Shown piece by piece: positions 1 through 21,329 of a stretch of 22,826 nucleotides of DNA. The number at the start of each line of letters is the position of its first letter. The stretch's first letter is position 1. The position numbers and the translations under genes were made by a program. The notes below the pieces were generated by a model that worked only from the letters and a program-made list of their open reading frames with translations, was not told where the DNA came from and did not search any database. The stretch covers positions 1-22,826 of IMG/VR virus record IMGVR_UViG_3300022848_000082. One strand, given 5' to 3'. Source of the DNA: a virus.

Positions 1-299
1 CCCGATAACACCAACTGCTCCGCCAACGCACATAAGGCATGGCTCTTCCCCGAGCCCGGTTTGCCGAACAGCAGAAGATTCTCTCGGCGATCCAAGAACG
101 ATCCCAGGAGATTCCCAGGAATACTTATCCACAATTGCTGCAGCGGTTTGAGTAGGCGAATCGTTGGATCTGAGCGTCGGTAGCGTGTTCGGAATTGCGC
201 TTGTGGAAAATATTCTTGCGAGAATCGGAATTGACTTGCTGCAACGAGCTCGCGTAACGTCTCGCCAGACGTTTGACACTTTGTCAGACGCAAACGCAA
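1..299 (-). CDS. IstB/DnaC-like ATPase, N-terminal part, cut by the window edge
   Basis: Reading the minus strand from about 299 to 1 gives an uninterrupted frame. It contains FLDRRENLLLFGKPGSGKSHA, printed here only to the Ala, followed by LCALAEQLVLSG. This is a Walker A P-loop (GKPGSGKSH) in the exact context of IstB/DnaC-family AAA+ ATPases, where a helix ending in F(I/L)xRxEN precedes the loop and a long helix follows. The family acts either as helicase loaders or as IS21 transposition helpers. Next to a phage replication-type region a helicase loader is the more natural reading, but that is inference. The start is unclear: there is no in-frame ATG near by, and a TTG at 299 is only a placeholder because the frame stays open further upstream under the plus-strand gene at 325. 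The residues before the P-loop do not show the usual IstB N-terminal motif, so a degraded copy is possible. Confidence 0.5.
   Translation of the reverse strand, partial: MRLRLTKCQTSGETLRELVAASQFRFSQEYFPQAQFRTRYRRSDPTIRLLKPLQQLWISIPGNLLGSFLDRRENLLLFGKPGSGKSHALCALAEQLVLS
125..133 (+). promoter_or_regulatory. DnaA-box-like site (TTATCCACA)
   Basis: The nine bases TTATCCACA match the strict bacterial DnaA-box consensus. A second site fitting TTWTNCACA lies 69 bp away on the other strand, next to an AT-rich patch. The pair could mark a DnaA-responsive origin or promoter. The site also lies inside the open minus-strand frame of the ATPase, so chance is possible. Confidence 0.35.
202..210 (-). promoter_or_regulatory. 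DnaA-box-like site (TTTTCCACA)
   Basis: On the minus strand this reads TTTTCCACA, which fits the relaxed DnaA-box pattern TTWTNCACA. It adjoins the AT-rich stretch GAAAATATTC. It is only meaningful together with the site at 125-133. Confidence 0.3.
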
Positions 300-324
300 T
301 CCCGATAACCTAAAGGATCGGATT

Positions 325-1278
325 ATGAAAGTTGCTGAATTAGACCTGTGTGGTGGCGTACGCGCTGCTTTTCCGTTTGCCTGCCCTTGGCGAACTGACC
401 GGGAGTTACCTGAGACAATGCCGCAGGGCTCGGTGGTGCGGCGATTGGAACCGTTTGACGATGGCGATGATGCCATCGTTGGCGATGATACCAACGATGG
501 CATCATAACCGCGGGGCGCAAGCACGATAGGACGGGGCGTGATGATGCGCGGGGCGTCGGTGATGATTCGGAGCGATACGCAGCTCTGGCGGACGTGCTG
601 GGTGATGATGACGCGACGATGGATGAGCTGTGCGCCGCATTCCTCAGCGCATCGCGGGACGCTGTGCGTGGTGCCCTGGACGATGCGGAATCGGCCCTGC
701 TTGCGGAGTCGTTCCAAGAGACCCTGCCCGCGCTCGAGAAGGCGTTGAAGCGATACTATCATAACAGAACCGGTAATGTCGACGATGCGGTGTCTTGGTG
801 CGTGTCCGAGCTGTATACGAGCGTGGTCGATGCGGTGTTGCGGGGTCGTCTTGCAGTCCCGGCCAATGCTAGCCAATGGATCGGCAGCGCTCGCAAAATT
901 CGAGGTGGCTATTGGAGCTCCAACCAGATCGTGATAGATGGAATGCCCGTAGCGCTGTTCGGGTGTGATGACACGGCTAACGATCACTACGAAAGTAGCC
1001 ACCTCGATAGCGATGACACAATCCGCGTCTCTCGCCTGCGTCTGGATAACGAGCAGTTTGCTAAACATCTCGTTTCGTTGTACGAACTCGGTGCGCAGTG
1101 TGACGACGCACCGGGCTGGGTAGTCGAATCCCTTTGCCTGCTAGTGGAGCATCCTACCGCTACGCAGTCAGAATACGCCGCACAACGTGGAGTCACGGTG
1201 GCATGGTGGAAGCGGTCGCTAGTCGACATCCGCAAAGCAATCCGGTTCGGCGCGTTGCTAGGCGTATTGGATTGCTAA
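325..1278 (+). CDS. Unknown acidic protein with a possible sigma-like/HTH C-terminus
   Basis: A 317-residue protein. The ATG at 325 is preceded by AAAGGA at good spacing. Residues about 40-90 are rich in Asp and Gly and partly encoded by an inverted repeat (467-506). Residues about 130-195 are helical, with a DDAVSWCVSELY segment that loosely recalls sigma-70 region 2. The C-terminus (EYAAQRGVTVAWWKRSLVDIRKAIR) looks like a helix-turn-helix of the region-4 type. A phage transcription factor or sigma-like protein is therefore possible, but I do not recognise the family. The gene stands alone and ends in a strong terminator at 1287-1322. The coding direction is supported by the ribosome site and terminator. 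A 220-residue open frame on the opposite strand (406-1068) is treated as a shadow. Confidence 0.75.
   Translation: MKVAELDLCGGVRAAFPFACPWRTDRELPETMPQGSVVRRLEPFDDGDDAIVGDDTNDGIITAGRKHDRTGRDDARGVGDDSERYAALADVLGDDDATMDELCAAFLSASRDAVRGALDDAESALLAESFQETLPALEKALKRYYHNRTGNVDDAVSWCVSELYTSVVDAVLRGRLAVPANASQWIGSARKIRGGYWSSNQIVIDGMPVALFGCDDTANDHYESSHLDSDDTIRVSRLRLDNEQFAKHLVSLYELGAQCDDAPGWVVESLCLLVEHPTATQSEYAAQRGVTVAWWKRSLVDIRKAIRFGALLGVLDC
467..506. repeat. Perfect 16-bp inverted repeat with 8-base loop inside a gene
   Basis: ATGATGCCATCGTTGG at 467-482 is the exact reverse complement of 491-506, with CGATGATA between. A second, overlapping palindrome (GATGGC-GATGAT-GCCATC, 460-477) shares the left arm. 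It lies in the Asp/Gly-rich linker of the gene at 325. It could be an operator, an mRNA hairpin or a small inserted palindromic element. Confidence 0.8.
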
Positions 1279-1409: not shown

Positions 1410-1883
1410 TCAACGGTTCAGTTGAGCCTTGACTCGATCGCCCATCGTTGATGCCGATTTAGCGGGCGTCTTGGCCTGCTTCGCGGGTTGAGCGGCCGCC
1501 GACGCCTCGTTTGACGGCGCCCCCCCCTGCGATGATATGAACTGGGCGAACATTGCGAGCATCTCGGCCGGCATGGCCGGCATGGCCGGCATGGCAACTG
1601 TCGGCGCTTCCACTGTCGGCGCTTCCACTTTCGGCGCTTCCACTTTCGGCGCGGCCTGCTGTGCCGTGGCTGCGTCCATCGCGTCGAGCATCTTTTGGAA
1701 CGTCTTAGCGTCGCCAAGAATCGCGTGCAATTCGTCGCGATAGATGGAGCGGAAGCGCCCCCGGGCACCAGCCTGCAATTGCAGAACTGGTGTAGCATCG
1801 GATCGTCCACCGAACGTGGTGAGCTGTGCTGTAAAAGTCGTTTTGCCATGGACGACTTCCGAAATGATCTGATTCGTGGTCAT
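1410..1883 (-). CDS. Unknown protein with an Ala/Pro/Val repeat linker
   Basis: A 157-residue protein on the minus strand. The ATG at 1883 is preceded by CTGGAGAATCACA, the same Shine-Dalgarno context used by its plus-strand neighbours. The N-terminal 75 residues (MTTNQIISEVVHGKTTFTAQ onward) look like a small folded domain with beta-strand character. Then comes a low-complexity linker of KVEAP/TVEAP repeats and MPA repeats, then a helical stretch (EMLAMFAQFISSQ) and an Ala/Lys-rich tail. I do not recognise the family. It diverges from the DUF932 gene, and both have their own copy of the 22-bp element upstream, which suggests the same class of regulation. Confidence 0.75.
   Translation of the reverse strand: MTTNQIISEVVHGKTTFTAQLTTFGGRSDATPVLQLQAGARGRFRSIYRDELHAILGDAKTFQKMLDAMDAATAQQAAPKVEAPKVEAPTVEAPTVAMPAMPAMPAEMLAMFAQFISSQGGAPSNEASAAAQPAKQAKTPAKSASTMGDRVKAQLNR
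1568..1652. repeat. In-frame short tandem repeats (9-bp and 15-bp units)
   Basis: Three tandem copies of CCGGCATGG (1568-1594) are followed by three full copies and one partial copy of a 15-bp unit TCGGCGCTTCCACTG/T (1601-1652). Both unit lengths are multiples of three, so the array encodes the MPA and VEAP repeats of the minus-strand gene and can change length without a frameshift. Confidence 0.9.
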
Positions 1884-1945
1884 TGTGATTCTCCAGTTTG
1901 TGAATCAAGTGAACGTCTTGCCCCGGTCTGTCGCCGGGTTCGTTT

Positions 1946-1967
1946 CAAGGTGCCGAGGGGGGTGGTT
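1946..1967 (-). promoter_or_regulatory. Early 22-bp element, copy A (minus orientation)
   Basis: On the minus strand this reads AACCACCCC-CCTCGG-CACCTTG. It lies 62 bp upstream of the start of the minus gene 1410-1883. It is the only minus-strand copy and faces the only minus-strand gene in this part, which ties the element to gene starts rather than to a fixed strand. Confidence 0.75.
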
Positions 1968-2009
1968 GGTCATGGATGCGTTGCGATGCGAACGCGATAC
2001 GTCTATCGA

Positions 2010-2050
2010 AATCCGCCAGTCGCGTTAAATCGCAATCCGTCAGTCGCGTT
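2010..2050 (+). repeat. Direct repeat pair with 24-bp period in a divergent intergenic region
   Basis: AATCCGCCAGTCGCGTT (2010-2026) is repeated as AATCCGTCAGTCGCGTT (2034-2050), one mismatch in 17. It sits between two divergently transcribed genes (286-bp gap, 1884-2169), where an operator or iteron would be expected. The rest of this gap holds copies A and B of the 22-bp element and no gene that I can support. Confidence 0.7.
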
Positions 2051-2088
2051 TCCATTGCATCGATTGACTTGAATTGAATTCCGCCAGC

Positions 2089-2110
2089 CACCACCCCCCT
2101 GCCCACCTTG
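2089..2110 (+). promoter_or_regulatory. Early 22-bp element, copy B
   Basis: CACCACCCC-CCTGCC-CACCTTG, ending 59 bp before the preferred ATG of the DUF932 gene. It pairs with copy A across the divergent intergenic region. Confidence 0.75.
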
Positions 2111-2169
2111 GACCGACAGCACCGGGCACTTGGCTCGGTAGCACCTGGTTCATTCTGGAGATTGATACA

Positions 2170-3156
2170 ATGCCCGCTTACTTCGATAAGGGACTCATGG
2201 TCGGACAGTCCGCATGGCACAAAGAGGGAACGGTGATTCCCGAAGACGATGATCGACGATTCGACATTGCCGCCTGCATCGGACTCGCCGACATGGACGA
2301 TACGATCATCAAAGGCCGCTGCTTCTACGTTCTCGATGAAGAGGACGGACAACCGTGTGACGAAGTTGAAGGGTCTTACGTCACTGTGCGTAGGTATGCC
2401 GATGGGTCTTACAAGGCCCTTGGGACCGTCGGCAGCAAGTACCAGCCATTGCAACCTCGGGAGGCGTTCGATTGGTTCCAACCGTGGCTCGAAACTCGGG
2501 AAGTGTCGATCGAGACCGCCGGGACTCTGCAAGGGGGCCGCGTTGATTGGGTGATGGCTCGCATCCTTCGGGACAACGTGGATGTCGGTGGGGGCGACGA
2601 GATCGCCAAGTATCTCATGCTCTCGACCGCTCACGATGGGTCACAAGCGACGTATTTGGGGTTCACGCCTCAACGGGTCGTTTGCAGCAACACGTTGGCG
2701 ATGGCCACGAGCAACAACGCATCGAAGTTACTTCGTGTCCGTCACACCAAAGGGCAAGAGCAAGCGTTGTCGACGATTCGAGAGACCATCGACCTGATCG
2801 ACCGCGAATTCAATGCGACTGGCGAGCAGTATCGCACGATGATGGAATGCAAAGTCAATCTGTCGGACATTCGAGCGTATGTCAAAATGGTCAACTCGGT
2901 CGATCCTGACATTGACGACGATGCGATCGGCAAGAAGATCGGCAAACGCATCAACGACATGGTGGGGATGGCCGTTGACGGTTTGGGGCAATCGCCAAAC
3001 GATCTAACGGCATGGTCAGCGTACAACGGGGTCACTCAGTATTTGAGCCACAAGTACGGATCGGATAACGAGAAACGTGTCGTTTCGATGATGCGAGGGA
3101 CCGCTGCCGATATGGGTCGTCGTGCTTACGATCTTGCGTTGCAATTGGCCAGCTAA
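2170..3156 (+). CDS. DUF932 family phage/plasmid protein
   Basis: A 328-residue protein. The start at 2170 is chosen because it has TTCATTCTGGAG just upstream and because the protein then begins MPAYFDKGLMVGQSAWHKEG, the usual opening of DUF932 (TIGR03299) proteins. The longer frame from 2074 would translate through the 22-bp element. The central part has the family-typical stretch STAHDGSQATYLGFTPQRVVC followed by SNTLAMA, then RVRHT (about residues 150-195). DUF932 proteins are common in phages and plasmids and are often encoded near replication or recombination genes, but the biochemical function is not settled. The gene ends in TAA, whose last two bases belong to copy C of the 22-bp element, and a terminator follows. 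Confidence 0.88.
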   Translation: MPAYFDKGLMVGQSAWHKEGTVIPEDDDRRFDIAACIGLADMDDTIIKGRCFYVLDEEDGQPCDEVEGSYVTVRRYADGSYKALGTVGSKYQPLQPREAFDWFQPWLETREVSIETAGTLQGGRVDWVMARILRDNVDVGGGDEIAKYLMLSTAHDGSQATYLGFTPQRVVCSNTLAMATSNNASKLLRVRHTKGQEQALSTIRETIDLIDREFNATGEQYRTMMECKVNLSDIRAYVKMVNSVDPDIDDDAIGKKIGKRINDMVGMAVDGLGQSPNDLTAWSAYNGVTQYLSHKYGSDNEKRVVSMMRGTAADMGRRAYDLALQLAS

Positions 3157-3176
3157 CCACCCCGGTCACCACCTTG
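3155..3176 (+). promoter_or_regulatory. Early 22-bp element, copy C
   Basis: AACCACCCC-GGTCAC-CACCTTG. It overlaps the DUF932 stop codon and is followed after four bases by an intrinsic terminator. If the element were itself a promoter start, its transcript would meet that hairpin at once. This copy is therefore informative about what the element does. Confidence 0.72.
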
Positions 3177-3180
3177 CTAC

Positions 3181-3213
3181 AAGCCCTCAGTCTTCGGACT
3201 GGGGGCTTTTTTT
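3181..3213 (+). terminator. Intrinsic terminator with TTCG tetraloop
   Basis: AAGCCCTCAGTC, loop TTCG, GACTGGGGGCTT then a run of T. The 11-bp stem has one G-T pair. It separates the DUF932 gene from the small gene at 3249. Confidence 0.93.
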
Positions 3214-3248
3214 GTAGACAGACCGTTCACTCACTTTGGAGATTCAAG

Positions 3249-3419
3249 ATGCTTGAGGAACTACATCCACTGATCGCAGCAAGAGTGCTGCAAATGATGG
3301 GAGAGCCCATTGAAGACCTGGCCCCTTTCAATGATGAACATCGTGAGATTGTTATCAAGTCTTTGCGAGTTGCATCTGACAAACGTCGGCCACTCACCAC
3401 CCCCCTCACCACCTTGTAG
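3249..3419 (+). CDS. Small unknown protein (56 residues)
   Basis: The ATG at 3249 has CACTTTGGAGATTCAAG before it, matching the ribosome-site context of neighbouring genes. The product begins MLEELHPLIAARVLQMMGEP and is acidic and helical through residue 45. Its last ten residues, RPLTTPLTTL, and its TAG stop come from copy D of the 22-bp element, so the element overlaps the 3' end of this gene. No family is recognised. The longer frame opening at 3174 is not used because it would begin inside the element and cross the terminator. Confidence 0.62.
   Translation: MLEELHPLIAARVLQMMGEPIEDLAPFNDEHREIVIKSLRVASDKRRPLTTPLTTL
3395..3416 (+). promoter_or_regulatory. Early 22-bp element, copy D
   Basis: CACCACCCC-CCTCAC-CACCTTG, in the 3' end of the gene at 3249 and 37 bp before the ATG at 3454. 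It is the closest copy to a start codon. Confidence 0.72.
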
Positions 3420-3453
3420 CGGACAAACCGCCACACAAACCTGGAGAACAATC

Positions 3454-3702
3454 ATGGACCCCAACGCATGTCTTGCTCGCATCTTTGAAGCACTGGAAGA
3501 TGGCGGTCACGAAGAGGCATTTTACGCTTGCCTTGATATGAAGGGCTGGCTCAACAAAGGCGGCTTCACGCCGACGCCCTACATGACACTCAAGAACGCT
3601 GACGGCGAAACGGCTTACAACATCGACGATCTCAAGGGCTTCTTGAAGATCACGATGGACAACTGCAAGCGTCGTTCGTCTCTCAACCCAGCCAACGGAT
3701 AG
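3454..3702 (+). CDS. Small unknown protein (82 residues)
   Basis: The start at 3454 is chosen over the longer frame at 3310 because AACCTGGAGAACAATC lies directly upstream and copy D of the 22-bp element precedes it. The protein (MDPNACLARIFEALEDGG at the start) has an N-terminal helix, then FTPTPYMTLKNADGETAYNI, and a basic end. I do not recognise it. The next gene follows after 13 bp, so the two are probably co-transcribed. Confidence 0.7.
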   Translation: MDPNACLARIFEALEDGGHEEAFYACLDMKGWLNKGGFTPTPYMTLKNADGETAYNIDDLKGFLKITMDNCKRRSSLNPANG

Positions 3703-3715
3703 GAATCAAACGATC

Positions 3716-4096
3716 ATGACCACCGCAACACTCAAAGCCAAGCACGGCGACGACCCGACGTACCTGAAGTTCCGACGCGATCTTGCCCAACGCAAATGGG
3801 CCAAGCGGAAACGAGCACGCAATGCGTTGTTCATCACCGCTGGGGCCAAGGCCGTTCGCCTAGTCAACGAATCTGGGGGCCAGTTGTTAATCCACCGGGC
3901 CACCCGAACCGACCGGACGAGCGATTGGCAACTCACAACGGTCAGCGCTCACGATGGACGACCGTTCGGCCACAATAACCCGCCGACGTTCCAAGAGGCC
4001 GTCCTGCGAGCTGTGGGGGCCTCGGAGGATTGTTACTGGAACGAACACGGATACGAAATCGTCGAAGTCATCTCAAGCGAGGTGGTCGATGCTTGA
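3716..4096 (+). CDS. Unknown basic protein (126 residues)
   Basis: The ATG at 3716 is preceded by a weak GGAA. Residues 1-40 are very basic (KFRRDLAQRKWAKRKRARNA), which suggests nucleic-acid contact. The rest is a mixed alpha/beta segment with WQLTTVSAHDGRPFGHNNPP. No family is recognised. The stop overlaps the start of the next small gene by eight bases, indicating translational coupling. Confidence 0.7.
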   Translation: MTTATLKAKHGDDPTYLKFRRDLAQRKWAKRKRARNALFITAGAKAVRLVNESGGQLLIHRATRTDRTSDWQLTTVSAHDGRPFGHNNPPTFQEAVLRAVGASEDCYWNEHGYEIVEVISSEVVDA

Positions 4097-4217
4097 TCTG
4101 TTCAACACAGCCTGCGATTGGATCGGCCCCGAGTGGGTCGGTTCGATCATCGGGATCGTTATCGTCGTGCCGTATGCGGCATGGCTGTTTTCACCAACTA
4201 CAAAGCAACGAGGATAG
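4089..4217 (+). CDS. Single-pass membrane peptide (42 residues)
   Basis: The ATG at 4089 overlaps the end of the preceding gene, with GAGG just upstream. The product has one hydrophobic segment (VGSIIGIVIVVPYAAWLF, about residues 17-34) and a short basic tail TTKQRG. It is too small to assign. Phage peptides of this shape include holin-like, superinfection-exclusion and accessory membrane proteins, but nothing here chooses between them. Confidence 0.5.
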   Translation: MLDLFNTACDWIGPEWVGSIIGIVIVVPYAAWLFSPTTKQRG

Positions 4218-4236
4218 CCCAGCTATCAAGTGGGCT

Positions 4237-4258
4237 GACCACCCTGCGGTCCACCTTG
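4237..4258 (+). promoter_or_regulatory. Early 22-bp element, copy E
   Basis: GACCACCCT-GCGGTC-CACCTTG, 19 bp after the preceding stop codon and about 150 bp before the ATG at 4406. It is the most diverged of the seven copies in the first half, but the spacing is kept. Confidence 0.65.
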
Positions 4259-4311
4259 CTTCGGCCCATCAGGCTGCTTACACTCCACTACAGAGGCGTA
4301 ACCGCCGTGAA

Positions 4312-4375
4312 CACGAGAGTCCCTGTAAGGGGCTCGACTGCCCGCGACGCTTGCGGTACCGACGCAACACGGTTT
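4312..4375 (+). promoter_or_regulatory. Structured leader upstream of the gene at 4406
   Basis: GAGTCCCT-GTA-AGGGGCTC (4317-4335) forms an eight-pair hairpin with one G-T pair. It is followed by CCGC-gacgctt-GCGG and the palindrome CGGTACCG. There is no T run, so these are not terminators. They could fold in the 5' leader of the next gene. I see no tRNA or known riboswitch here. Confidence 0.3.
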
Positions 4376-4405
4376 TCATGTTGCAACACATCTACAGGTT
4401 TCACG

Positions 4406-4816
4406 ATGTCAAACACAAGAACAATCACGCTCACCGGCCGTCCACCCGTGACGATCAATGAGGAAAACTGGCCGATGTTTGCCTCGGCCAGCGACAAGTC
4501 CCATGATGGACAGATCGAGTGTCAAGCTAACCGAATGACCAGATGGTTTATCGGTGTTCGCAAACACAAAGACGGCCGAGCGATCGTCAACGCAACTTAC
4601 AGTTACACGTCCAACTGGCAGGGGGCGCGGGACTATTCCGCCAAGCGAGGCGTCTTGCTCGATGGATCGCCGGATGTATCACAGATCATCGACGCGATCC
4701 ACGAAGTCGCCAACGAGATTGCGGAAGCAGAGCACAACAGCGAGGAGCACATCGCAAGATGGCCGACACTCGTTGCCGAGGTGATCGCTGACATGCCAGC
4801 CGAAAATTTGGAATAA
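4406..4816 (+). CDS. Unknown protein (136 residues)
   Basis: The start at 4406 (MSNTRTITLTGRPPVTINEE) is preferred over the open frame beginning at 4118, because the latter would read through the membrane-peptide gene, the 22-bp element and the leader hairpins. The ribosome site is weak (ACAGG). The protein has a beta-rich N-terminal half with FIGVRKHKDGRAIVNATYSY and a helical, acidic C-terminal half (residues about 90-136). No family is recognised. A strong terminator follows. Confidence 0.68.
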   Translation: MSNTRTITLTGRPPVTINEENWPMFASASDKSHDGQIECQANRMTRWFIGVRKHKDGRAIVNATYSYTSNWQGARDYSAKRGVLLDGSPDVSQIIDAIHEVANEIAEAEHNSEEHIARWPTLVAEVIADMPAENLE

Positions 4817-4831
4817 CCACCGTCTCTCCAG

Positions 4832-4876
4832 AGCCCCCTTTCCCGTCACTTCGGTGGCGGGTCTGGGGGTTTTTTC
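4832..4876 (+). terminator. Intrinsic terminator with TTCG loop
   Basis: The inner stem is CCCGTCAC, loop TTCG, GTGGCGGG. An outer CCCCC/GGGGG stem encloses it, followed by TTTTTT. It lies 16 bases after the plus-strand stop and just beyond the stop of the convergent minus gene. Confidence 0.92.
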
Positions 4877-4890
4877 GTTTCTGGACTCGA

Positions 4891-5526
4891 TCAACCGCGA
4901 GTATCGCACAGAAGCGAGACCGAGTAGATCACCGGTGTGACCGCCGTCCCCGTGGCCGCGTCGTTACAAGCGACCGCGATCCGCACGTCCAAGAGATCGC
5001 CAGGGTCAACGCCACTGGCATCAATGGTGAAGTCGACATCGGCCGGCGTCAGGCTGTTCATCGTCGCCGCTGCGGTCGTTACCAACTCCGCGCTGACACT
5101 GCCCGCCCCATCGCTCTTACGCGCCTCACAGTCCACCGTGCAGGTCGTGTCGGCAACGGTGGTTTCCATCGCACATCGCAGCCGCAACTGGATCGTCTCG
5201 CCGTCCTGATAGTGATCCGGCACCGGGATCTGGAACCTTGCGTACCGGGTGGTCGCCCCGGCTGCCTTGAGGTCTCCCGCTAGGAGTTCTGGGCAGTTAG
5301 TGCCAAACGATCCCGCGTCGATTCCCAGGTCATCGGATGCCGCTGAAGCTGGCAAGAGAGAGGTGATCGCATCGTGAACGCGACCATTGGTCAGTGCAAC
5401 AGGGATCTCCTGCAACACCCTTTGCGCTAGCTTCTCGACGCCGATCGCAGCCTGGGAACTGATACATCGATCAGTGACAAAGCTGTCAGGAAGGATAATT
5501 GTGGTTGACTCGACAATGGTGGTCAT
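4891..5526 (-). CDS. Unknown beta-rich, virion-like protein on the minus strand
   Basis: A 211-residue protein from the ATG at 5526 (MTTIVESTTIILPDSFVTDR). A GTG at 5559 would add 11 residues. The upstream GAGATCAG is a modest ribosome site. The middle and C-terminal parts are rich in Thr, Ala and alternating hydrophobic residues (FTIDASGVDPGDLLDVRIAV, then CNDAATGTAVTPVIYSVSLL). This fits a beta-sandwich structural protein. Similar compositions occur in phage virion proteins, but this is only a compositional judgement. It is the only minus gene in the 2-10 kb stretch and no copy of the 22-bp element faces it, so it may be expressed at a different time. Confidence 0.65.
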   Translation of the reverse strand: MTTIVESTTIILPDSFVTDRCISSQAAIGVEKLAQRVLQEIPVALTNGRVHDAITSLLPASAASDDLGIDAGSFGTNCPELLAGDLKAAGATTRYARFQIPVPDHYQDGETIQLRLRCAMETTVADTTCTVDCEARKSDGAGSVSAELVTTAAATMNSLTPADVDFTIDASGVDPGDLLDVRIAVACNDAATGTAVTPVIYSVSLLCDTRG

Positions 5527-5624
5527 TGAACTGATCTCAAATACGGGTAACTGATCCACTTAGAGGGTAAAGCGATGCCATATCGTATCGCCTCGAATCG
5601 AAAAACCAAGTCTATTTATCGGCA

Positions 5625-5646
5625 GACCACCCCGCTAACCACCTTG
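5625..5646 (+). promoter_or_regulatory. Early 22-bp element, copy F
   Basis: GACCACCCC-GCTAAC-CACCTTG, ending 59 bp before the start of the clamp gene. Here it is not attached to any preceding stop codon, since the neighbouring gene is divergent. It therefore seems to serve the downstream gene. Confidence 0.75.
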
Positions 5647-5705
5647 GTTCGACCGAGCAGCACACCGCTGCCAACCATGTTCCTTTCACTTCACTGGAGA
5701 ATCTT

Positions 5706-6776
5706 ATGTCCGCTGCAACATCGAGCGTCGTCTCACAAAAACGACTCGCCACCTTCCTGCGTTTGTTCAAGCCAAAGACGTGCCGTATCTCGTCCGACGG
5801 CGGATTGATCTGGGCCTTCCATCCCATCGAAGGCAGCCCGTGTCTCGTCGCACCCGCCATCTGCATCGGCGAAGGTGACGCCAAGGGGGCCATCGAGATC
5901 GACGTGAAAAAGTACGGCAAGTTCATCCGCTCATCGGGAACCAATGCCGACATCGCCGCGACCTACGATGGCAAGTCCCTGTCACTGGAGTCCGACAAGC
6001 TCGGCAGCATGGAGTTCGAGAAAGACGCCAAGCACGTCAGTGAGTACGCACCACTGGATGAACGGGGCGAATACCTCGTCACCATCCCGGCCGACGTGGT
6101 GAAGCAGATGGCGGGCTACGCTGACCGAACTGATTCCGAGTCCAGACGCTACGCATTGAGCGGGTTCCTCGTCGAGCAAGAACACTTCATCGCCACCGAT
6201 GGTCGTCGGTTACTGGTAGGCAAGATCGACCACCTCGGGGCTCAGGAGTTTGCCATCGGCGCCAAGGAAAACAAACCGGGAGACGAACTGGTTCCGTTTT
6301 CGGTCAATGTCCCCGCCGATCTGGTCCGCTACGCTGCCATGCTGGGCGAGTCGATCGACGTGTTCCAACAACGGCTGATCGCCGGCGACGTGGTGGCGGC
6401 TCCGGTCGATGGGCGCTTCCCAACCTGGCGGCAAGTGCTCGTGGAAACCGACACCGAAACGCCAGTCGACATTGACGATATGATCCAACGATGCGATAAG
6501 CAACTCGCCATTTCCAAGATCAACAATGGGGAGGAGATGGGGCTGGAACTGGTAATGAGCCACGACGATGAGGAATTCAAGGCCACGTTTGACTGCCGTT
6601 ACCTGGCCGCCGCAATCAAGGGGCGATCCGCTGCGACGATCAACTACGCCAGCGACGGGGTTCAGTCGAAATACAACGAACGGTGCTTTGAATCGCCCAT
6701 TGTGGTGACCAACGCCGACGAGCCGAACGTCCAAGAGGTTATCATGGCAATGTCCCGCAATCCGAAGCGGGAATAA
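5706..6776 (+). CDS. dnaN: DNA polymerase III beta-subunit-like sliding clamp
   Basis: A 356-residue protein, close to the 365-380 usual for DnaN. The ATG at 5706 has CACTGGAGAATCTT upstream. Family hallmarks are RRYALSGFLVEQEHFIATDG (about residues 146-165), followed by RRLLV, which matches the clamp R-Y-x-L-x-G...ATDGxRL signature. Also seen are VDGRFPTWRQVLV in the third domain, FDCRYLAAAIKG before the last domain, and a C-terminal EVIMAMSR in the place of the usual MPMR end. The clamp would encircle DNA and tether a polymerase during phage replication. It has its own 22-bp element and forms a single-gene unit. No polymerase gene is visible in the window. Confidence 0.82.
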   Translation: MSAATSSVVSQKRLATFLRLFKPKTCRISSDGGLIWAFHPIEGSPCLVAPAICIGEGDAKGAIEIDVKKYGKFIRSSGTNADIAATYDGKSLSLESDKLGSMEFEKDAKHVSEYAPLDERGEYLVTIPADVVKQMAGYADRTDSESRRYALSGFLVEQEHFIATDGRRLLVGKIDHLGAQEFAIGAKENKPGDELVPFSVNVPADLVRYAAMLGESIDVFQQRLIAGDVVAAPVDGRFPTWRQVLVETDTETPVDIDDMIQRCDKQLAISKINNGEEMGLELVMSHDDEEFKATFDCRYLAAAIKGRSAATINYASDGVQSKYNERCFESPIVVTNADEPNVQEVIMAMSRNPKRE

Positions 6777-6781
6777 TCCTC

Positions 6782-6803
6782 AACCACCCCCCTCCCCATC
6801 TTG
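6782..6803 (+). promoter_or_regulatory. Early 22-bp element, copy G
   Basis: AACCACCCC-CCTCCC-CATCTTG, five bases after the clamp stop codon and 124 bp before the ATG at 6928. The rest of the 6804-6927 gap shows only a GC-rich imperfect hairpin near 6850-6875. Confidence 0.72.
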
Positions 6804-6927
6804 TACCGGGCGGCATCCGTGTCGCCCACCCTCGGCCCTCTATCTCGCTCGCCTGCTCGTTGGCGGGGGCTGCACAATCCAAGCGGTTTGGGTTGACTAG
6901 GAAGCGATACCATTCTGGAGAATTAAG

Positions 6928-9624: not shown

Positions 9625-9834
9625 ATGCCTCTTCCCGATCTGACGACTCGCCAGCAATCCACTCTCATCAACAAGGTGGATCACAACTGCCGTCGAAATG
9701 GCAAGAGATTCCTGCGTGATCTCGGCGGAACTGGGCACGCCGCTGAACTCGACGCGCAATTACAAATCGCCCGTAACAATCCCGATGCGGTGAAAGCCGC
9801 CGAACTCTTTACGAAGGAGAAAGATCGGAAATGA
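9625..9834 (+). CDS. Small unknown protein upstream of the recombinase (69 residues)
   Basis: The ATG at 9625 has only a weak ribosome site. The product begins MPLPDLTTRQQSTLINKVDH and is helical and charged. Its stop overlaps the recombinase start in ATGA, so both are translated together. It could be an accessory factor of the recombinase, but there is no recognisable motif. Confidence 0.62.
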   Translation: MPLPDLTTRQQSTLINKVDHNCRRNGKRFLRDLGGTGHAAELDAQLQIARNNPDAVKAAELFTKEKDRK

Positions 9835-10655
9835 AAGTCATAGGATATGGTCGTGAATCGACCGCCGACCAATCGATTTCTGCCGAAGTGCAGCAGCGAC
9901 AATGCCGCGAGTGGTTTGACCGAACATTCAAGGACAATCCTGACGCGAAGTTTGTGCGAATGCTCAACGACGAGTCCGTCTCAGGCAAGACACGCCTGTT
10001 CCAACGTCCGCAGGGGAGTCTCCTGTTGACCATGCTCGAACGAGGCGACACCGTCGTCGCGTCCAAAATGTCACGGATGTTTCGATCCATGCCCGACACG
10101 GTCAACACGCTCGACGTGTTCAATGAAGCCGGCATCAAGGTCGTGCTGCTCGACATCGGCATGGACTTCGACACGCCAGTGGGCAAACTAATCTTCCACA
10201 TCCTCGGGGCAGTCAATCAGTTTGAACGCGAACTAATCTCCGAGCGGACCAAGGAAGCTCTCGCCCAGCTCCGTGAACGTGGCCAATACCTCGGCTCACC
10301 ACCGCCGGGGTGGAAGTTCGACAGCAAGCGGACCAACGGGATTCGGGAACTGATCCCTGACATGGACCGCCGCACCTTCGGGGAATACTCCCTCGATCAA
10401 CTGGTCGAAGGCCGATCCGCCAAGTCGATTGCCTGCGAGATCGAAGCACTATTGCGGCGCGAGCACATCCAACGACACGGCACCAACCTGAAGGAAAAAC
10501 GAGAGAAGATCGCGTTCTCCGACACCGATGTCGTTCGACTCGCCGCCTTTGCAGTGGCCGGGTTCCCGCCGATCAATAGCACGGCGCTGAAAAAAGTCCT
10601 CGGTGTCAATCCATTCCGAGTTGAAACCCTGCGGCAACTGGCAGCGTCCGCCTAA
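9831..10655 (+). CDS. Serine recombinase (resolvase/invertase family)
   Basis: A 274-residue protein. The start at 9831 has AAGGAGAAA upstream. The N-terminal catalytic domain (about residues 1-145) opens with IGYGRESTADQS, placing the nucleophile at Ser10. It also contains VVASKMSRMFRSMPDT (the resolvase K..R..R signature) and FERELISERTKEAL, which begins the long E helix. The enzyme would form a 5'-phosphoserine link to DNA during site-specific recombination. The C-terminal 125 residues are longer than in small resolvases but much shorter than in large serine integrases. The end (TALKKVLGVNPFRVETLRQL) looks like a DNA-binding helix-turn-helix. It could be the phage integrase or a resolvase/invertase. 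It is not an integron integrase, since those are tyrosine recombinases. Confidence 0.88.
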   Translation: MKVIGYGRESTADQSISAEVQQRQCREWFDRTFKDNPDAKFVRMLNDESVSGKTRLFQRPQGSLLLTMLERGDTVVASKMSRMFRSMPDTVNTLDVFNEAGIKVVLLDIGMDFDTPVGKLIFHILGAVNQFERELISERTKEALAQLRERGQYLGSPPPGWKFDSKRTNGIRELIPDMDRRTFGEYSLDQLVEGRSAKSIACEIEALLRREHIQRHGTNLKEKREKIAFSDTDVVRLAAFAVAGFPPINSTALKKVLGVNPFRVETLRQLAASA

Positions 10656-14212: not shown

Positions 14213-14803
14213 GTGCCCCGCCCTGCTGACGAACCTGCTTTCACGCCCGAGCATCCGCCGGGCGACGAAAAGTTCTGCACGCTATGCGGGGAAGAAAAAC
14301 CCATCGACGAATTCCACGTCGATGAGTCGGCTCATGACGGACGCAAGTCCAATTGCAAGGCGTGCCGATCACTTCAGCACGCCGAAGATGTGGAGTCTAA
14401 GGTCGACCCCCGCCTCGCCAAGATTGAAGAGGCAGGACTCGAAGCGCTCGACGCCTTCGCGGGTGGCGGATCATTCAACCCGCACACCCAAGAGCTGATC
14501 GACGGGTTTATGAGATTCCTGGGCGGTCACTACGGCCTGGTGAAACTGACGATGGCCCACTACCACGCGGCCAAACCAGGCAGTGCCGAGCGAGGGAAGA
14601 CACTCGATAAAATCTACCGGCTGATCGCCGCTGAGGACAAGCAGGATGGCTCGCTCGACAAACTTGACCGACGCCAACTCGAAGCCCTCGTCGTCAGCAT
14701 CGGCACCAAAGCCGGGATGCTGCCCAAGCCGAACGACACGCTGTCTCTCGATCACCCCGAAACCGTCAACGCGATCGCCCGTTCCAAAGGCGACGCACTA
14801 TGA
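14213..14803 (+). CDS. Putative small terminase subunit with zinc-finger N-terminus
   Basis: A 196-residue protein beginning at GTG 14213 with AGGAAG upstream. Near the N-terminus it has FCTLCGEEKPIDEF, then about 14 residues later NCKACRS. This is a CxxC...CxxC zinc site like that of endonuclease-VII-like and HNH-associated zinc domains. The rest is helical (KLDRRQLEALVVSIGTKAGM). It overlaps the large terminase gene in ATGA, the usual place for the small terminase, which recognises packaging DNA. A nuclease role cannot be excluded, but no His-Me active-site motif is visible. Confidence 0.55.
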   Translation: MPRPADEPAFTPEHPPGDEKFCTLCGEEKPIDEFHVDESAHDGRKSNCKACRSLQHAEDVESKVDPRLAKIEEAGLEALDAFAGGGSFNPHTQELIDGFMRFLGGHYGLVKLTMAHYHAAKPGSAERGKTLDKIYRLIAAEDKQDGSLDKLDRRQLEALVVSIGTKAGMLPKPNDTLSLDHPETVNAIARSKGDAL

Positions 14804-17658
14804 TTGACGACATCGAATTCAGTGACATCGATCTTTCGACACACCTCGACACCGCCAACGAGATGCAGTCGGGCAGCGAAGCCAACGACTACGTGATCGA
14901 CGAGTATCACCTGCACAAGATGCACTCCGCAGCGTCGGAGATCCAGCGCCGGGACATGGAGGCGATGCGGATCTATCGCCCCTCCAAAATCCAAGAGCAG
15001 TACCACGCATCCACTGCCAAGGAGACCGTGTTCGTTGCCGGGAACCAAATCGGCAAATCCATTGCCGGATACTCGGAAGACGGACGAGCTGCCGGTGGAT
15101 GCGACCCGTACGGCAAGTACCCCGAGAAAGATGGCATCCTGGCCATCGTGGTCTACAAGGAATCGCAGATCAGGCTGAACACCTATCGGTATCTCCTCAA
15201 GCCCGGTGCGTTCGACATCATCCAAGACGAAGAGACCGGCATCTGGAAACCCTATTATCCCTGGGTTCCCTCCGATGTTGCTCGCGCCGATCAACGGCGG
15301 CCCGCCCCACCGATCCTTCCACCGCGAATGATTAAGAGAATCCACTGGAAGTCCAAGATGGGCAACGTCCTGTCTCGGATCGACATGGAGAACGGTTGGG
15401 AGATTCACGTCTTCTCGTCGACCGCGAAACCAGATGCCGGGTTCCAAGCCGACCTCGTTCATATCGATGAAGACATCGCCAACGAAGAATGGTACGTCGA
15501 GATGATCGCCCGTCTCTCGATCCGCAAGGGACTCCTGCGATGGACCGCCCTACCGCTGTTCGATAACGACGCGCTGCCTCGTATCGTCGAACGGGCCGAC
15601 GACGAAGCGGAGAAGCACGCACGCGGCGGACCTGTGCCTACCACGACGGTCGTTCGCGGAACCATTTTCGATAACCCGTACCTGACCGACGATACCCGCG
15701 AAGAAAACATCAAGCGATGGAAGGACGCGGGCGACGATGTCTACCGGCAACGTGCCCTCGGAGAACTCATCACCGACACGGTTCGGATGTACCCGACGTT
15801 CACGCCGGAAATCCATGCCGTCCAACGTTACGGCGAATCGCATCCTGAGTTGTTCGGCGAGTACCTTCGCACCCGTCGAATCCCCGACGATTGGTGTCTG
15901 AGATTGTTTGTTGACCCTGGGTTCTCCACCTGTGCCGCGTTGCTGTTCGCGACCCTGCGACCCGAGGGCGGCGACGACTCCGAACCAATGATTCACGTTG
16001 CTGTGCGTGAAATCTATCGCCAGCAATGTGACGCCTCGATCTTTGCCCAACTCGCCTCGCAAACCGTTGGCGATCGATGGTTGCAAGCGATGGTCATCGA
16101 CGCCCACGGTGGTCGACTCACCGGCATCGGCGATGGTCGGCGTCCACAAGAGATCTACGAAAGCGAACTGGCCGAACGAAACGTCGTGTGCGTGGAGACC
16201 GGCTCTCGCTTCCGTGCTGGCTGCGACGACATCGTCTACCGGGAAACCGCACTGCGACAACGGTTGATCGTCTCGCCAGTCACCGGGCTACCGGAGTTTA
16301 TGTACGACGAGGAGATGTGCCCGAACCTTGAAAAAGAAATGGTGCGGTTCCGAAAGCTGAGAACCCGTGGCGTCATCACCGATAAAGGCAACCGCAAAGC
16401 ATTTACGCACGCTGTCGAGTGTTTCTGTGACCAAACCGAAGTCCTTACTGAAAGTGGCTGGAAGCGTTTTGCAGACGCCAGTATCAGCGACCGTTTAGCG
16501 ACCGTGAACTTGGATACCGATACGCTTGAGTTTCAGCATCCATCTCGAATTGTTGAAAGACCTCACAACGGACCGATGGTTCATGTTCACGCACAGAAGC
16601 TCAATGCGATGGTCACTCCTAATCATCGGATGGTTTACTACTCCGACACCGCAAGGCGAAAAAAGACAGGTCCATCTATCTGTTTCGCGGGCGACCTGTC
16701 TCCAAGCTATGCGTTAAAGCTGGCGGCAAAAAACTGGAACGCAGTTTCACCAAAGACATTCGTGCTGCCTGCGGTAGAACTGGATTCGCGACCAGGTAAG
16801 CCTGCCGAATTAAACAGACTCGACTTCGCCCGGTTCATGGGATGGTACATCGCCGAAGGCTCTGCGGACAAAACAGTGCGTTGCCCTGGAAAGGGCTATC
16901 GCGTGTGCATTGCACAGAGAAAAGAACACGGCATCAACGCGATTCGCGAAATGCTTTCAAAGCTACCGTTTCATTTCGTTGTATCGGGCGACTGCTTCGT
17001 GATCTCCAACAAGCAACTGTGGTCGTACCTTCGCCAGTTCGGAGACTGCTACACCAAGTTCGTTCCAGACTGGGTGCGACACGGAAGCAGAGAAGTCATC
17101 GAGTCGTTTATGGAAGGCGCTATGGCTGGCGATGGGTGGGTACAAAAGAACGCTCGACGATACGGAACCTCCAGCCCCCGCCTCGCCGACGACATCCAAG
17201 AACTATTCCTCAAACTCGGTTGTTCTGCATCTGTCACTGTTCGGTCGGCAGAGACGGCCGTGTCAAGGATGGTGAGAGGAAAGCCCTGCAAATCTACCTG
17301 TGATTTCTTCACGGTAATCGAGAGGCTTGTTCCGAGCGTCCGCCTTAGTGACGCACACGACAAGCCGAATTTCAGCACAACGAACTACACCGGAAAGGTG
17401 TTCTGCGCAACCGTCCCCAATGGGACTCTTGTTGTAAGACGCAACGGCCAACCGCTCGTCGCTGGCAATTGCTATGAGTACGCAGCCGCCGACGAACTCA
17501 AGTACCACGCACCTCCCGCCCGTCGAACCCGCGAAACCCCCGGCGAACGTCGTGTTCGGATGTGGCGGGAACGCCAAGCGAAGCGACGAAAACAAATGGG
17601 TGGCGCTCTCGGCGTCATCCATGGCGGCATCGACCTGTCTGCTCCCATGCCCACTTAA
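14800..17658 (+). CDS. terL: Phage terminase large subunit, interrupted by an intein
   Basis: A 952-residue precursor; without the intein it is 602 residues. The ATPase half has a Walker A-like GNQIGKS (residues 81-87) and Walker B LVHIDED with D223/E224. The nuclease half (RNase H fold) shows FVDPG with D372 and VIDAHGG with D434. The mature protein would read HAVE-CYEYAAADEL at the splice junction, placing the intein in the last conserved nuclease motif near the C-terminus. TerL pumps DNA into the procapsid and cuts the concatemer. It starts inside the end of the preceding gene (ATGA). Splicing is needed for function, since the intein separates the last nuclease motif. Confidence 0.9.
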   Translation: MIDDIEFSDIDLSTHLDTANEMQSGSEANDYVIDEYHLHKMHSAASEIQRRDMEAMRIYRPSKIQEQYHASTAKETVFVAGNQIGKSIAGYSEDGRAAGGCDPYGKYPEKDGILAIVVYKESQIRLNTYRYLLKPGAFDIIQDEETGIWKPYYPWVPSDVARADQRRPAPPILPPRMIKRIHWKSKMGNVLSRIDMENGWEIHVFSSTAKPDAGFQADLVHIDEDIANEEWYVEMIARLSIRKGLLRWTALPLFDNDALPRIVERADDEAEKHARGGPVPTTTVVRGTIFDNPYLTDDTREENIKRWKDAGDDVYRQRALGELITDTVRMYPTFTPEIHAVQRYGESHPELFGEYLRTRRIPDDWCLRLFVDPGFSTCAALLFATLRPEGGDDSEPMIHVAVREIYRQQCDASIFAQLASQTVGDRWLQAMVIDAHGGRLTGIGDGRRPQEIYESELAERNVVCVETGSRFRAGCDDIVYRETALRQRLIVSPVTGLPEFMYDEEMCPNLEKEMVRFRKLRTRGVITDKGNRKAFTHAVECFCDQTEVLTESGWKRFADASISDRLATVNLDTDTLEFQHPSRIVERPHNGPMVHVHAQKLNAMVTPNHRMVYYSDTARRKKTGPSICFAGDLSPSYALKLAAKNWNAVSPKTFVLPAVELDSRPGKPAELNRLDFARFMGWYIAEGSADKTVRCPGKGYRVCIAQRKEHGINAIREMLSKLPFHFVVSGDCFVISNKQLWSYLRQFGDCYTKFVPDWVRHGSREVIESFMEGAMAGDGWVQKNARRYGTSSPRLADDIQELFLKLGCSASVTVRSAETAVSRMVRGKPCKSTCDFFTVIERLVPSVRLSDAHDKPNFSTTNYTGKVFCATVPNGTLVVRRNGQPLVAGNCYEYAAADELKYHAPPARRTRETPGERRVRMWRERQAKRRKQMGGALGVIHGGIDLSAPMPT
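16420..17469 (+). other. Intein with LAGLIDADG homing endonuclease (350 residues)
   Basis: Intein residues 541-890 of the precursor. It begins CFCDQTEVLTESGWKRF, matching the block A pattern CxxxxTxVLTxxGW. Block B is VTPNHRM with T606 and H609. LAGLIDADG motif 1 is MGWYIAEGS (680-688, acidic E686), and motif 2 is MEGAMAGDG (771-779, acidic D778). The end is TVPNGTLVVRRNGQPLVAGN, then Cys+1. The penultimate residue is Gly instead of the usual His, a variation known in some active inteins. Both catalytic acids are present, so the endonuclease may be active. Base use in this part is less GC-rich than in the exteins, as expected for an invader. Confidence 0.92.
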
Positions 17659-17681
17659 CCCTCTTCCTCGATTGGAAAACC

Positions 17682-18020
17682 ATGCCAAAGCCCGCGATCA
17701 ACCCAACCGCCACCGACACCACCGATACGCCGTGGAAAATGCCACAGCCCCACCGTGGGCAAACGGTCATCTTCCATCGCCTCGGACTCAAGAACGAAGT
17801 CACTGACGTGCTCGCCATCGTGCTCGCCGTCAGCCCGGTCAACGTCGAAATGTCGATCAACGGAATCGTTTACGAATCCATTCGGCACTGCGACGACCCT
17901 CGCGCAAAGGGACGGCCGGAACTGCGAGACCCTGGAACCTGGGACTTCAGTGACCACGAGAAGGAACTCTGGGATCGCATCGCCAAGCTGGAAGAACAGA
18001 TGGCGGAACTCCTGAAGTAG
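17682..18020 (+). CDS. Unknown protein with C-terminal coiled coil (112 residues)
   Basis: The ATG at 17682 (MPKPAINPTATDTTDTPWKM) is preferred over the frame from 17562, which lies inside the terminase end. GGAAAACC upstream is a weak ribosome site. The middle has a small beta segment (GQTVIFHRLGLKNEVTDVLA) with some resemblance to phage head-tail adaptor-like domains. The C-terminus WDRIAKLEEQMAELLK is a short coiled coil. It sits between terminase and portal, so a packaging or connector role is plausible but unproven. Confidence 0.68.
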   Translation: MPKPAINPTATDTTDTPWKMPQPHRGQTVIFHRLGLKNEVTDVLAIVLAVSPVNVEMSINGIVYESIRHCDDPRAKGRPELRDPGTWDFSDHEKELWDRIAKLEEQMAELLK

Positions 18021-18054
18021 ACACCACCACCCCCTACGCCTGTACCACGCAACC

Positions 18055-20211: not shown

Positions 20212-20573
20212 GAAAGCGGACGCAACGAATTCACGATGGTCGTGTCGAGCTAACAATCAGCCGACATGCCATCGATCGGTTCCGCTTTCGGGTTGCCAAG
20301 ATTCGGCCAGATCTCATTCCCGCCGAAGTCGCCAGGATGATGCGGGACGTGACGCCCATCCACCGAAACAGCCACGACGACAACAAAATCTACCTGTCTC
20401 ACAAAGAATGTGTCTTCGTCATTGCCCGTCGATCCGGTGTGCTCGTCACCGTTCTCCCGCCCGATGGTGAAAGCACCTCGCGATTCTCCAAGTCCTACAA
20501 GGACCAACGTTCTGAACGACGCACTCGAAAGCTGCGTTCATTCGCTCCCCATCAACGCCCCCGACAGGAATGA
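20208..20573 (+). CDS. Unknown basic protein (121 residues)
   Basis: The start at 20208 overlaps the portal stop in ATGA, showing coupling. The protein is basic. It contains ISRHAIDRFRFRVAKIR, reminiscent of the DUF4258-like pattern (sHaxxRxxxR) seen in small toxin-like and phage proteins, then KIYLSHKECVFVIARRSG and VLVTVLP. The function is unknown. In this location a small virion or host-acting protein is possible. Confidence 0.62.
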   Translation: MRKRTQRIHDGRVELTISRHAIDRFRFRVAKIRPDLIPAEVARMMRDVTPIHRNSHDDNKIYLSHKECVFVIARRSGVLVTVLPPDGESTSRFSKSYKDQRSERRTRKLRSFAPHQRPRQE

Positions 20574-20579
20574 TCCACC

Positions 20580-21197
20580 TTGACTATCAAGCAGACCATC
20601 GACGCCTTCGACGCCGCATGTGACAAGCACGGCATCTCGCTGACGCAACGTGAATCCATGCTGCAAGAATCACTCGACAAGAATGTGACCGGTCGGATGC
20701 TCGACATGGTTCTCAATGGCGAGTCGCCGCGAATGGCACTAATGCTCGCGATGCAGCAACCACCCGGCACCAAGGGAACCGATTCCGTGTTCAATGCTGC
20801 CGAAAATCGACGCGTCGGCCAACAGTACAGTGACGAATACATGAGCAAGATCACCGCGATCGCCAAGCGGGCAGGCGTCGACACCACCGGCAAAACCTAC
20901 AACGGGCAACTCGGAAAGTATCACGACCCGCACGCCTGGGTATCAGGACTCGGCGACGTTCGCGCCGCAGCCAAGGCCAAGGGCTACCGAATCGAGGGCG
21001 CGGTCAACGTCGATCACCTCGATGAGAACGCACCGCCCAAGCCTGCCCCGAAATTGTCCGAGAGATTGATTCGCGAGCAAACCGAAAACGTGGTGGCTCA
21101 GAACCCAGGGATCGCCGCTAAGGTTGCACAGTCACCCAGGGCGGCGAAGACCCTGCGAGAGCAGATCATCGACCGGCACGGCTCCAAGCGAACCTGA
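20580..21197 (+). CDS. Unknown, possibly virion-associated protein (205 residues)
   Basis: It begins with TTG at 20580, supported by AGGAATGA upstream and by tight spacing to the previous gene. The product (MTIKQTIDAFDAACDKHGIS at the start) is helical and charged. A mid segment, GLGDVRAAAKAKGYRIEGAV, and a basic tail follow. It is the last gene of the head operon before the second late element. No family is recognised. Confidence 0.6.
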   Translation: MTIKQTIDAFDAACDKHGISLTQRESMLQESLDKNVTGRMLDMVLNGESPRMALMLAMQQPPGTKGTDSVFNAAENRRVGQQYSDEYMSKITAIAKRAGVDTTGKTYNGQLGKYHDPHAWVSGLGDVRAAAKAKGYRIEGAVNVDHLDENAPPKPAPKLSERLIREQTENVVAQNPGIAAKVAQSPRAAKTLREQIIDRHGSKRT

Positions 21198-21212
21198 TCG
21201 CTTACCAAACTG

Positions 21213-21238
21213 AACGAATTTATACGAACTTGCGACAC
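21213..21238 (+). promoter_or_regulatory. Late 26-bp element, copy 2
   Basis: AACGAATTTATACGA followed by ACTTGCGACAC, 24 of 26 identical to 11009-11034. It ends 91 bp before the preferred ATG at 21330. The flanks of the two copies differ, which argues that the element itself is under selection. Confidence 0.6.
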
Positions 21239-21329
21239 TTCGGAGTTCTTGTTCTTCCCAGAGCCAGATGGGTTCTTATCTTCGAGTGGTCTGACTCACG
21301 GTGCCTATTCCTGTTTTCACGGCGACCCC

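What the first reader, a model, noticed from the sequence alone, without database searches (positions are those of the whole stretch)
1946..6803. Seven copies of a spaced 22-bp element mark early gene units on both strands
The consensus is (A/G)ACCACCCC, six variable bases, CACCTTG, with constant length. Copies lie at 1946 (minus), 2089, 3155, 3395, 4237, 5625 and 6782. Each faces the next gene, including the single minus copy that faces a minus gene. They occur only in the presumed early half, not in the head operon. ACCACC recurs with a 13-bp period inside the better copies, which suggests two contacts by one protein. The motif does not look like a sigma-70 promoter. Copy C is followed at once by a terminator, so the element could also be a C-rich Rho-loading or antitermination site.
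Basis: partly seen in the sequence, partly recalled or inferred. Interest (0 to 1): 0.82.

Follow-up and report, generated by a model that had tools for sequence, protein, structure and literature searches.

The report
Repeated leader signal in phage genes
A virus of bacteria carries seven near-identical 22-base signals, each at the start of a gene unit in one block of its genome, each followed at once by a small RNA hairpin and usually by a shared ribosome-binding sequence, which suggests a private switch that controls a whole set of viral genes together.

Summary
Seven 22-bp copies exist where stated (chance expectation 0.35); the next best site scores 12 bits against 27-33. All seven face the next gene. 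None lies in the rest of the window or in a 99.9%-identical contig that extends the same phage by about 17 kb of tail genes. No other virus or bacterial genome searched holds such an array.

Three things are new. (1) Conservation runs about 8 bp further (CACCTTG-NNN-CGR-N-C). (2) A local hairpin of unrelated sequence starts 3-11 nt after every copy (combined z about -7, only at that offset). (3) Six of the seven genes carry YTGGAGA 5-8 nt before ATG; none of 26 other genes does (P = 6e-6). The internal repeat has a 12-bp period, not 13.

So this is a composite leader (box + hairpin + start-site element) defining one early regulon. I favour a signal read in the nascent RNA, working like a nut/antitermination or leader-control site (0.40), over an unusual promoter (0.30) or repressor operator (0.12). 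The nearest known kind is the SAS/ESAS pair of cluster K mycobacteriophages; it works like that but is not a member. No protein partner was identified; a sigma-factor idea was tested and dropped.

The parts
1946..1967 (-). Box copy A (AACCACCCCCCTCGGCACCTTG), 62 nt before ATG of gene 1410-1883(-)
1922..1938 (-). Hairpin after copy A (CCCGG-CGACAGA-CCGGG)
1890..1895 (-). Start-site element TGGAGA (CTGGAGA), 6 nt before ATG
2089..2110 (+). Box copy B, 59 nt before ATG 2170
2121..2139 (+). Hairpin after copy B
2156..2161 (+). Start-site element TGGAGA, 8 nt before ATG
3155..3176 (+). Box copy C; overlaps the TAA stop of the DUF932 gene; 72 nt before ATG 3249
3181..3208 (+). Hairpin after copy C; it has a 12-bp stem and a following T-run, i.e. 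an intrinsic terminator
3237..3242 (+). Start-site element TGGAGA (TTGGAGA), 6 nt before ATG 3249
3395..3416 (+). Box copy D, inside the 3' end of ORF 3249-3419; 37 nt before ATG 3454
3419..3431 (+). Hairpin after copy D (GCGG-ACAAA-CCGC)
3442..3447 (+). Start-site element TGGAGA, 6 nt before ATG 3454
4237..4258 (+). Box copy E (weakest), 147 nt before ATG 4406; an in-frame GTG at 4307 would be 48 nt away
   Evidence: GTG by inspection
4262..4276 (+). Hairpin after copy E; no TGGAGA follows in this leader
5625..5646 (+). Box copy F, 59 nt before ATG 5706 (sliding-clamp-like gene)
5657..5671 (+). Hairpin after copy F (GCAGC-ACACC-GCTGC)
5695..5700 (+). Start-site element TGGAGA, 5 nt before ATG
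6782..6803 (+). Box copy G, 124 nt before ATG 6928
6808..6827 (+). Hairpin after copy G
6916..6921 (+). Start-site element TGGAGA, 6 nt before ATG
2170..3156 (+). DUF932 protein (phrog_1221), first rightward gene of the regulon
5706..6776 (+). DNA polymerase processivity factor-like protein (phrog_947)
1410..1883 (-). 157-aa protein divergent from the DUF932 gene; predicted beta-rich N-terminus; no homologue found; candidate regulator by position only

Best explanation
A composite leader signal defines one early regulon. Shown: each of seven units starts with a fixed box (ACCACCCC-N6-CACCTTG-NNN-CGR), then a hairpin 3-11 nt later, and in six of seven a YTGGAGA element just before ATG. Inferred: the box and hairpin are read in the nascent RNA by a phage-specified factor, much as lambda N reads nut sites. 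The factor either makes the polymerase read through (for example past the terminator directly behind copy C, in front of gene 3249) or licenses and protects the leader, so that the units are switched on together. Which of these two, and which protein does it, is not shown.
For: Hairpin energy is significant only in the 30 nt directly after the box (Stouffer z -7.2 for seven copies, -5.6 without copy C; other offsets -3.4 to +1.3; P about 5e-6 from random windows). Stems and loops differ between copies, so the structure is kept but not the sequence. The start-site element, a feature of the mRNA, occurs at 6 of 7 box genes and 0 of 26 others. All copies point along transcription, including the divergent pair A/B. 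The box is C-rich, mostly unpaired, has no AT-rich stretch and no sigma-70 site beside it. Gene 3249 carries the regulon start element but lies directly behind a strong terminator, with about 20 nt between terminator and start element, so some read-through is needed. Copies occur in one module only.
Against: Hairpin loops and the box-hairpin distance (3-11 nt) are not conserved, unlike lambda boxB. Hairpins also occur in other gaps of this phage and at leader starts in relative L142 without any box, so the hairpin may be a general feature. Copies C and D lie where ribosomes finishing the upstream gene would cover the RNA. The box blocks are spaced about one DNA turn apart, which fits a DNA-binding protein. 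No antiterminator or RNA-binding partner was found in the sequence held. No relative covering the whole module was found, so there is no comparative test.
Confidence: 0.4

Rival explanations
1. An unusual promoter or activator site. The box is bound as DNA by a phage-specified initiation factor, transcription starts at its 3' edge, and the hairpin is the protective 5' end of each mRNA.
For: Oriented at unit starts on both strands; blocks about one helical turn apart (positions 2-9, 15-22, 26-28); the hairpin locked just after the box fits a 5'-terminal stem; no sigma-70 promoters nearby; copies C and D lie in ribosome-covered DNA, which would not hinder a DNA site.
Against: No AT-rich melting region in or after the box; no -10-like columns; copy C would drive straight into a terminator at +5; no single-subunit RNA polymerase or sigma factor recognised in the window, G001 or L187; the sigma idea for gene 325-1278 failed.
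Confidence: 0.3
2. Dispersed asymmetric operators of a phage repressor, working like the stoperators of cluster A mycobacteriophages.
For: Asymmetric, dispersed, oriented sites in intergenic gaps of the non-structural region; a serine recombinase gene at 9831-10655 leaves a temperate lifestyle open.
Against: No repressor identified; stoperators are genome-wide and here the late genes have none; a downstream hairpin and a start-site element are not explained.
Confidence: 0.12
3. An RNA processing site: a nuclease cuts in the unpaired box and the downstream hairpin protects the new 5' end, making single-unit mRNAs (works like the early RNase III sites of T7).
For: Intercistronic placement directly after stop codons (C, D, G); a generic, sequence-variable hairpin just downstream.
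Against: Copies A, B and F are first in their units, where no upstream cistron needs to be cut off; stems of 4-12 bp are far shorter than RNase III sites; no nuclease candidate.
Confidence: 0.1
4. Boundaries of recombining gene cassettes, with the repeat as crossover site.
For: Copies sit at gene ends in one direction, and the middle six bases vary.
Against: No arm symmetry as in dif or att sites; start-site element and hairpin unexplained; no empty or rearranged versions seen.
Confidence: 0.04

Closest known systems
SAS and ESAS of cluster K mycobacteriophages (PMC3203893, PMC11373665, PMC12699233)
   Same: Short asymmetric repeats, oriented with the gene, in large intergenic gaps of the non-structural half, absent from host genomes, with two linked elements: one upstream and one at the ribosome-binding site whose conservation exceeds a plain Shine-Dalgarno.
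   Different: Different sequences. The upstream element here is a C-rich 22-30 nt box followed by variable hairpins, not conserved 17-bp inverted repeats with SigA-like -35/-10 hexamers, and it lies 37-147 nt from the start codon. SAS is GGGATAGGAGCCC; here the start element is YTGGAGA. One copy here faces a minus-strand gene; the single reversed SAS of some cluster K phages does not face a gene start.
Lambda nut sites (boxA plus boxB hairpin), from general knowledge
   Same: Linear box followed by a hairpin in the leader of early units on both strands, confined to early genes.
   Different: Seven copies instead of two; no boxA similarity; hairpin sequence and spacing not fixed; no N-like protein found.
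Stoperators of cluster A mycobacteriophages (PMC9283540)
   Same: Asymmetric, dispersed, oriented repeats in phage intergenic DNA.
   Different: Confined to one module, longer, linked to hairpin and start-site element; no repressor identified.
Single-subunit phage RNA polymerase promoters (T7 class), from general knowledge
   Same: About 20-bp highly conserved oriented repeats before units, transcripts often with a 5' stem-loop.
   Different: Variable six-base centre, no AT-rich start region, no polymerase gene in any sequence held.

Membership tests
SAS/ESAS (cluster K) | 13-bp GGGATAGGAGCCC within about 3-9 bp of start codons | tested here: not met
   The start-site element is YTGGAGA, 5-8 nt before ATG
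SAS/ESAS (cluster K) | 17-bp conserved inverted repeats with SigA-like hexamers upstream | tested here: not met
   Box is asymmetric; hairpins differ between copies; no -35/-10
SAS/ESAS (cluster K) | Restricted to the non-structural half, oriented with the gene | tested here: met
Lambda-type nut site | Unpaired box followed by hairpin in the leader | tested here: met
   that the box is transcribed is inferred
Lambda-type nut site | Conserved hairpin loop and fixed geometry recognised by an N-like protein | tested here: not met
   Loops and spacing vary
Lambda-type nut site | Terminator read-through depends on the site and Nus factors | not testable with these tools
   Needs expression experiments
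Sigma-70 promoter | -35 and -10 hexamers 16-18 nt apart | tested here: not met
   6 sites against 5.1 expected, none beside a copy
Phage-encoded sigma factor with cognate promoters | A sigma-family protein in the phage | tested here: not met
   Gene 325-1278: no sigma hit in Pfam, PHROGs or PDB; not above shuffles with a 20-sequence sigma profile. The genome held is incomplete.
Cluster A stoperator | Bound by the immunity repressor and found genome-wide | tested here: inconclusive
   Not in about 17 kb of late DNA; no repressor recognised; genome incomplete
Rho utilisation site | Long C-rich, G-poor unstructured RNA | tested here: not met
   C>G bias is essentially limited to 22 nt and a hairpin follows

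The most novel reading that the evidence does not exclude
A phage lineage has evolved its own three-part leader code (linear box, generic hairpin, dedicated start-site sequence) read by an undescribed phage factor that couples transcription read-through and translation start for a set of early genes, a mechanism distinct from nut, stoperator and SAS/ESAS systems.
Probability: 0.2. Interest if true: 0.75.

Novelty: new variant of a known kind. Interest (0 to 1): 0.5.

Why it matters
How uncultured phages group their early genes into regulons is mostly unknown, and the function of the best-studied comparable repeats (SAS/ESAS) is still open. Here a well-defined seven-member set links an upstream box, a hairpin and a start-site sequence in one small module, and one copy stands directly before a terminator, so read-through, promoter and translation models make opposite and simple predictions in a reporter assay.

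Tried and rejected
Chance or low complexity: rejected. Shared host element: rejected; a stringent pattern gave 39 single hits in 84,980 genomes and 1 in IMG/VR, those examined (3) lying inside ORFs, and two planctomycete genomes (host unproven) held it no more often than the reversed control. Known RNA family: no match above threshold, none at the boxes. tRNA: none. Gene 325-1278 as sigma factor with CGR as -10: suggested by inspection, dropped; AlphaFold model useless (pLDDT 37). Gene 1410-1883 as PC4-like: fold search gave nothing significant. Finding relatives of the module: searches with DUF932, clamp, mixed early proteins and box-plus-start pattern found nothing; portal relatives do not reach it, except L142, which overlaps its right edge. 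There the homologue of gene 7280 is preceded by a hairpin but no box. Consensus RNA structure over the copies: none, as the hairpins are unrelated in sequence. Prophage in bacterial genomes: no convincing portal relative.
Full report
OBSERVATION. The motif RACCACCCCNNNNNNCACCTTG occurs seven times at up to 3 mismatches, against 0.35 expected from dinucleotide shuffles, none of which reached seven. On a weight matrix the seven copies score 26.7-33.4 bits; the eighth best site in the window scores 12.4. Coordinates and strands are as given. The internal repeat is ACCACC at positions 2-7 and NCCACC at 14-19, a 12-bp period, not 13.

EXTENT. Around the copies, columns 26 (C 7/7), 27 (G 6/7), 28 (A/G 7/7) and 30 (C 6/7) are also conserved; no random set of seven windows in 5000 reached this downstream signal, while the upstream side is marginal at 0.05. 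The element is about 30 bp: RACCACCCCSSTNNCCACCTTGNWNCGRNC.

DISTRIBUTION. The window is a virus record. Contig G001 (L125/L146) is 99.9% identical over window 14565-22826 and continues about 17 kb through tail genes; it has no copy with fewer than two mismatches. L187 is a related phage (89% DNA over window 98-836) that extends to the other side, with CsrA, DUF3799 nuclease and RecT genes and no copy. A stringent form that four of the seven copies match gave 39 single hits in 84,980 bacterial and archaeal genomes and one in IMG/VR; the three examined lay inside ORFs. In two planctomycete genomes the looser pattern was no commoner than its reversed control. The host is not known; the array is private to this phage as far as the collections show.

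PLACEMENT. Copies precede genes 1410(-), 2170, 3249, 3454, 4406, 5706 and 6928, with 62, 59, 72, 37, 147, 59 and 124 nt to the start codon (the row for 3454 was entered there one base early). Copy C overlaps the stop codon of the DUF932 gene and copy D lies in the last codons of ORF 3249-3419. Units at 325(+), 4891(-), 7935(+) and beyond have large gaps but no copy, so this is a specific set and not a general feature of gene starts.

HAIRPIN. In all seven copies a stem-loop starts 3-11 nt after the box and ends by +32. Folding 30-nt windows against dinucleotide shuffles, the combined z is -7.2 directly after the box (-5.6 without copy C) and between -3.4 and +1.3 at every other offset from -110 to +100; random windows reach the seven-copy value with P about 5e-6. 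I noticed the hairpins by eye first; the offset scan is the control. Stems are unrelated in sequence and no consensus structure exists. Other gaps of this phage also contain hairpins, and in relative L142 leaders begin with hairpins without a box, so what is special here is the locking of hairpin to box.

START-SITE ELEMENT. Six of the seven box genes have YTGGAGA 5-8 nt before ATG. None of the 26 other genes I listed does (P = 6e-6), and in the window TGGAGA followed by ATG within 16 nt occurs at these six places only. The exception is 4406, which may start at an in-frame GTG (4307) instead. The contrast was found after the fact but is nearly complete. L142 has one such start, before its recombinase gene.

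MECHANISM. Two of the three parts (hairpin, start-site element) act in RNA; the box is C-rich, mostly unpaired in predicted leaders, and without AT-rich DNA or sigma-70 sites. Gene 3249 carries the regulon's start element yet stands directly behind an intrinsic terminator that follows copy C by 5 nt, with about 20 nt between terminator and start element. Its expression needs read-through or a promoter buried in the terminator. I therefore rank a leader signal in RNA, working like nut or a translation/stability control site, first (0.40). An unusual promoter whose transcripts begin with the hairpin is close behind (0.30): it explains the locked hairpin and the roughly helical spacing of the conserved blocks, but not the AT-poor site or the terminator after copy C. 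Repressor operators (0.12), processing sites (0.10) and cassette boundaries (0.04) follow.

PARTNER. None found. Gene 325-1278 looked by eye like a sigma factor with a C-terminal HTH, but Pfam, PHROGs, PDB and a 20-sequence sigma profile give no support. The divergent gene 1410-1883 is a candidate by position only; its model and fold searches are inconclusive.

COMPARISON. The closest published kind is the SAS/ESAS pair of cluster K mycobacteriophages: oriented, non-structural half, large gaps, absent from the host, with one element at the ribosome-binding site and one upstream (PMC3203893). In Adephagia the ESAS contains putative SigA-like promoters (PMC11373665), and the function of both elements is still called unclear (PMC11373665, PMC12699233). 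The present system works like that in layout but fails its defining sequences, so it is a new variant of the kind, not a member.

LIMITS. The genome is incomplete, the host unknown, no relative covers the whole module, and everything rests on one genome's seven copies.

Noticed in passing
2011-2093: The divergent region between copies A and B holds two copies of AATCCGYCAGTCGCGTT 24 bp apart and a third partial copy (ATTCCGCCAGCC) abutting copy B; possibly a separate operator or promoter repeat.
   Followed up: no
L187:4852-5103: A related phage (89% DNA identity over 750 bp) encodes a CsrA protein (Pfam E 6e-19); the regulon start element TGGAGA contains GGA, the CsrA core, so a link is worth testing.
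   Followed up: partly
14800-17658: The terminase-like gene carries an in-frame LAGLIDADG intein region.
   Followed up: partly
L142:97-113 and L142:1495-1511: The relative phage has an identical 17-nt hairpin sequence (CCTCGGCACTCGCCGGG) in two leaders, and two other genes share GGATTACGA before ATG: perhaps its own start-associated set.
   Followed up: partly
467-506: A perfect 16-bp inverted repeat (ATGATGCCATCGTTGG, 8-nt spacer) lies inside gene 325-1278; the L187 homologue differs there.
   Followed up: no
1286-1390: Two strong terminator hairpins in tandem separate convergent genes 325-1278(+) and 1410-1883(-).
   Followed up: no
1-97: Identity with L187 stops at about window position 64-98, inside the DnaC-like gene, a mosaic boundary.
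   Followed up: no
21900-22826: Trypsin-like protease with a predicted signal-like N-terminus among the phage structural genes.
   Followed up: no
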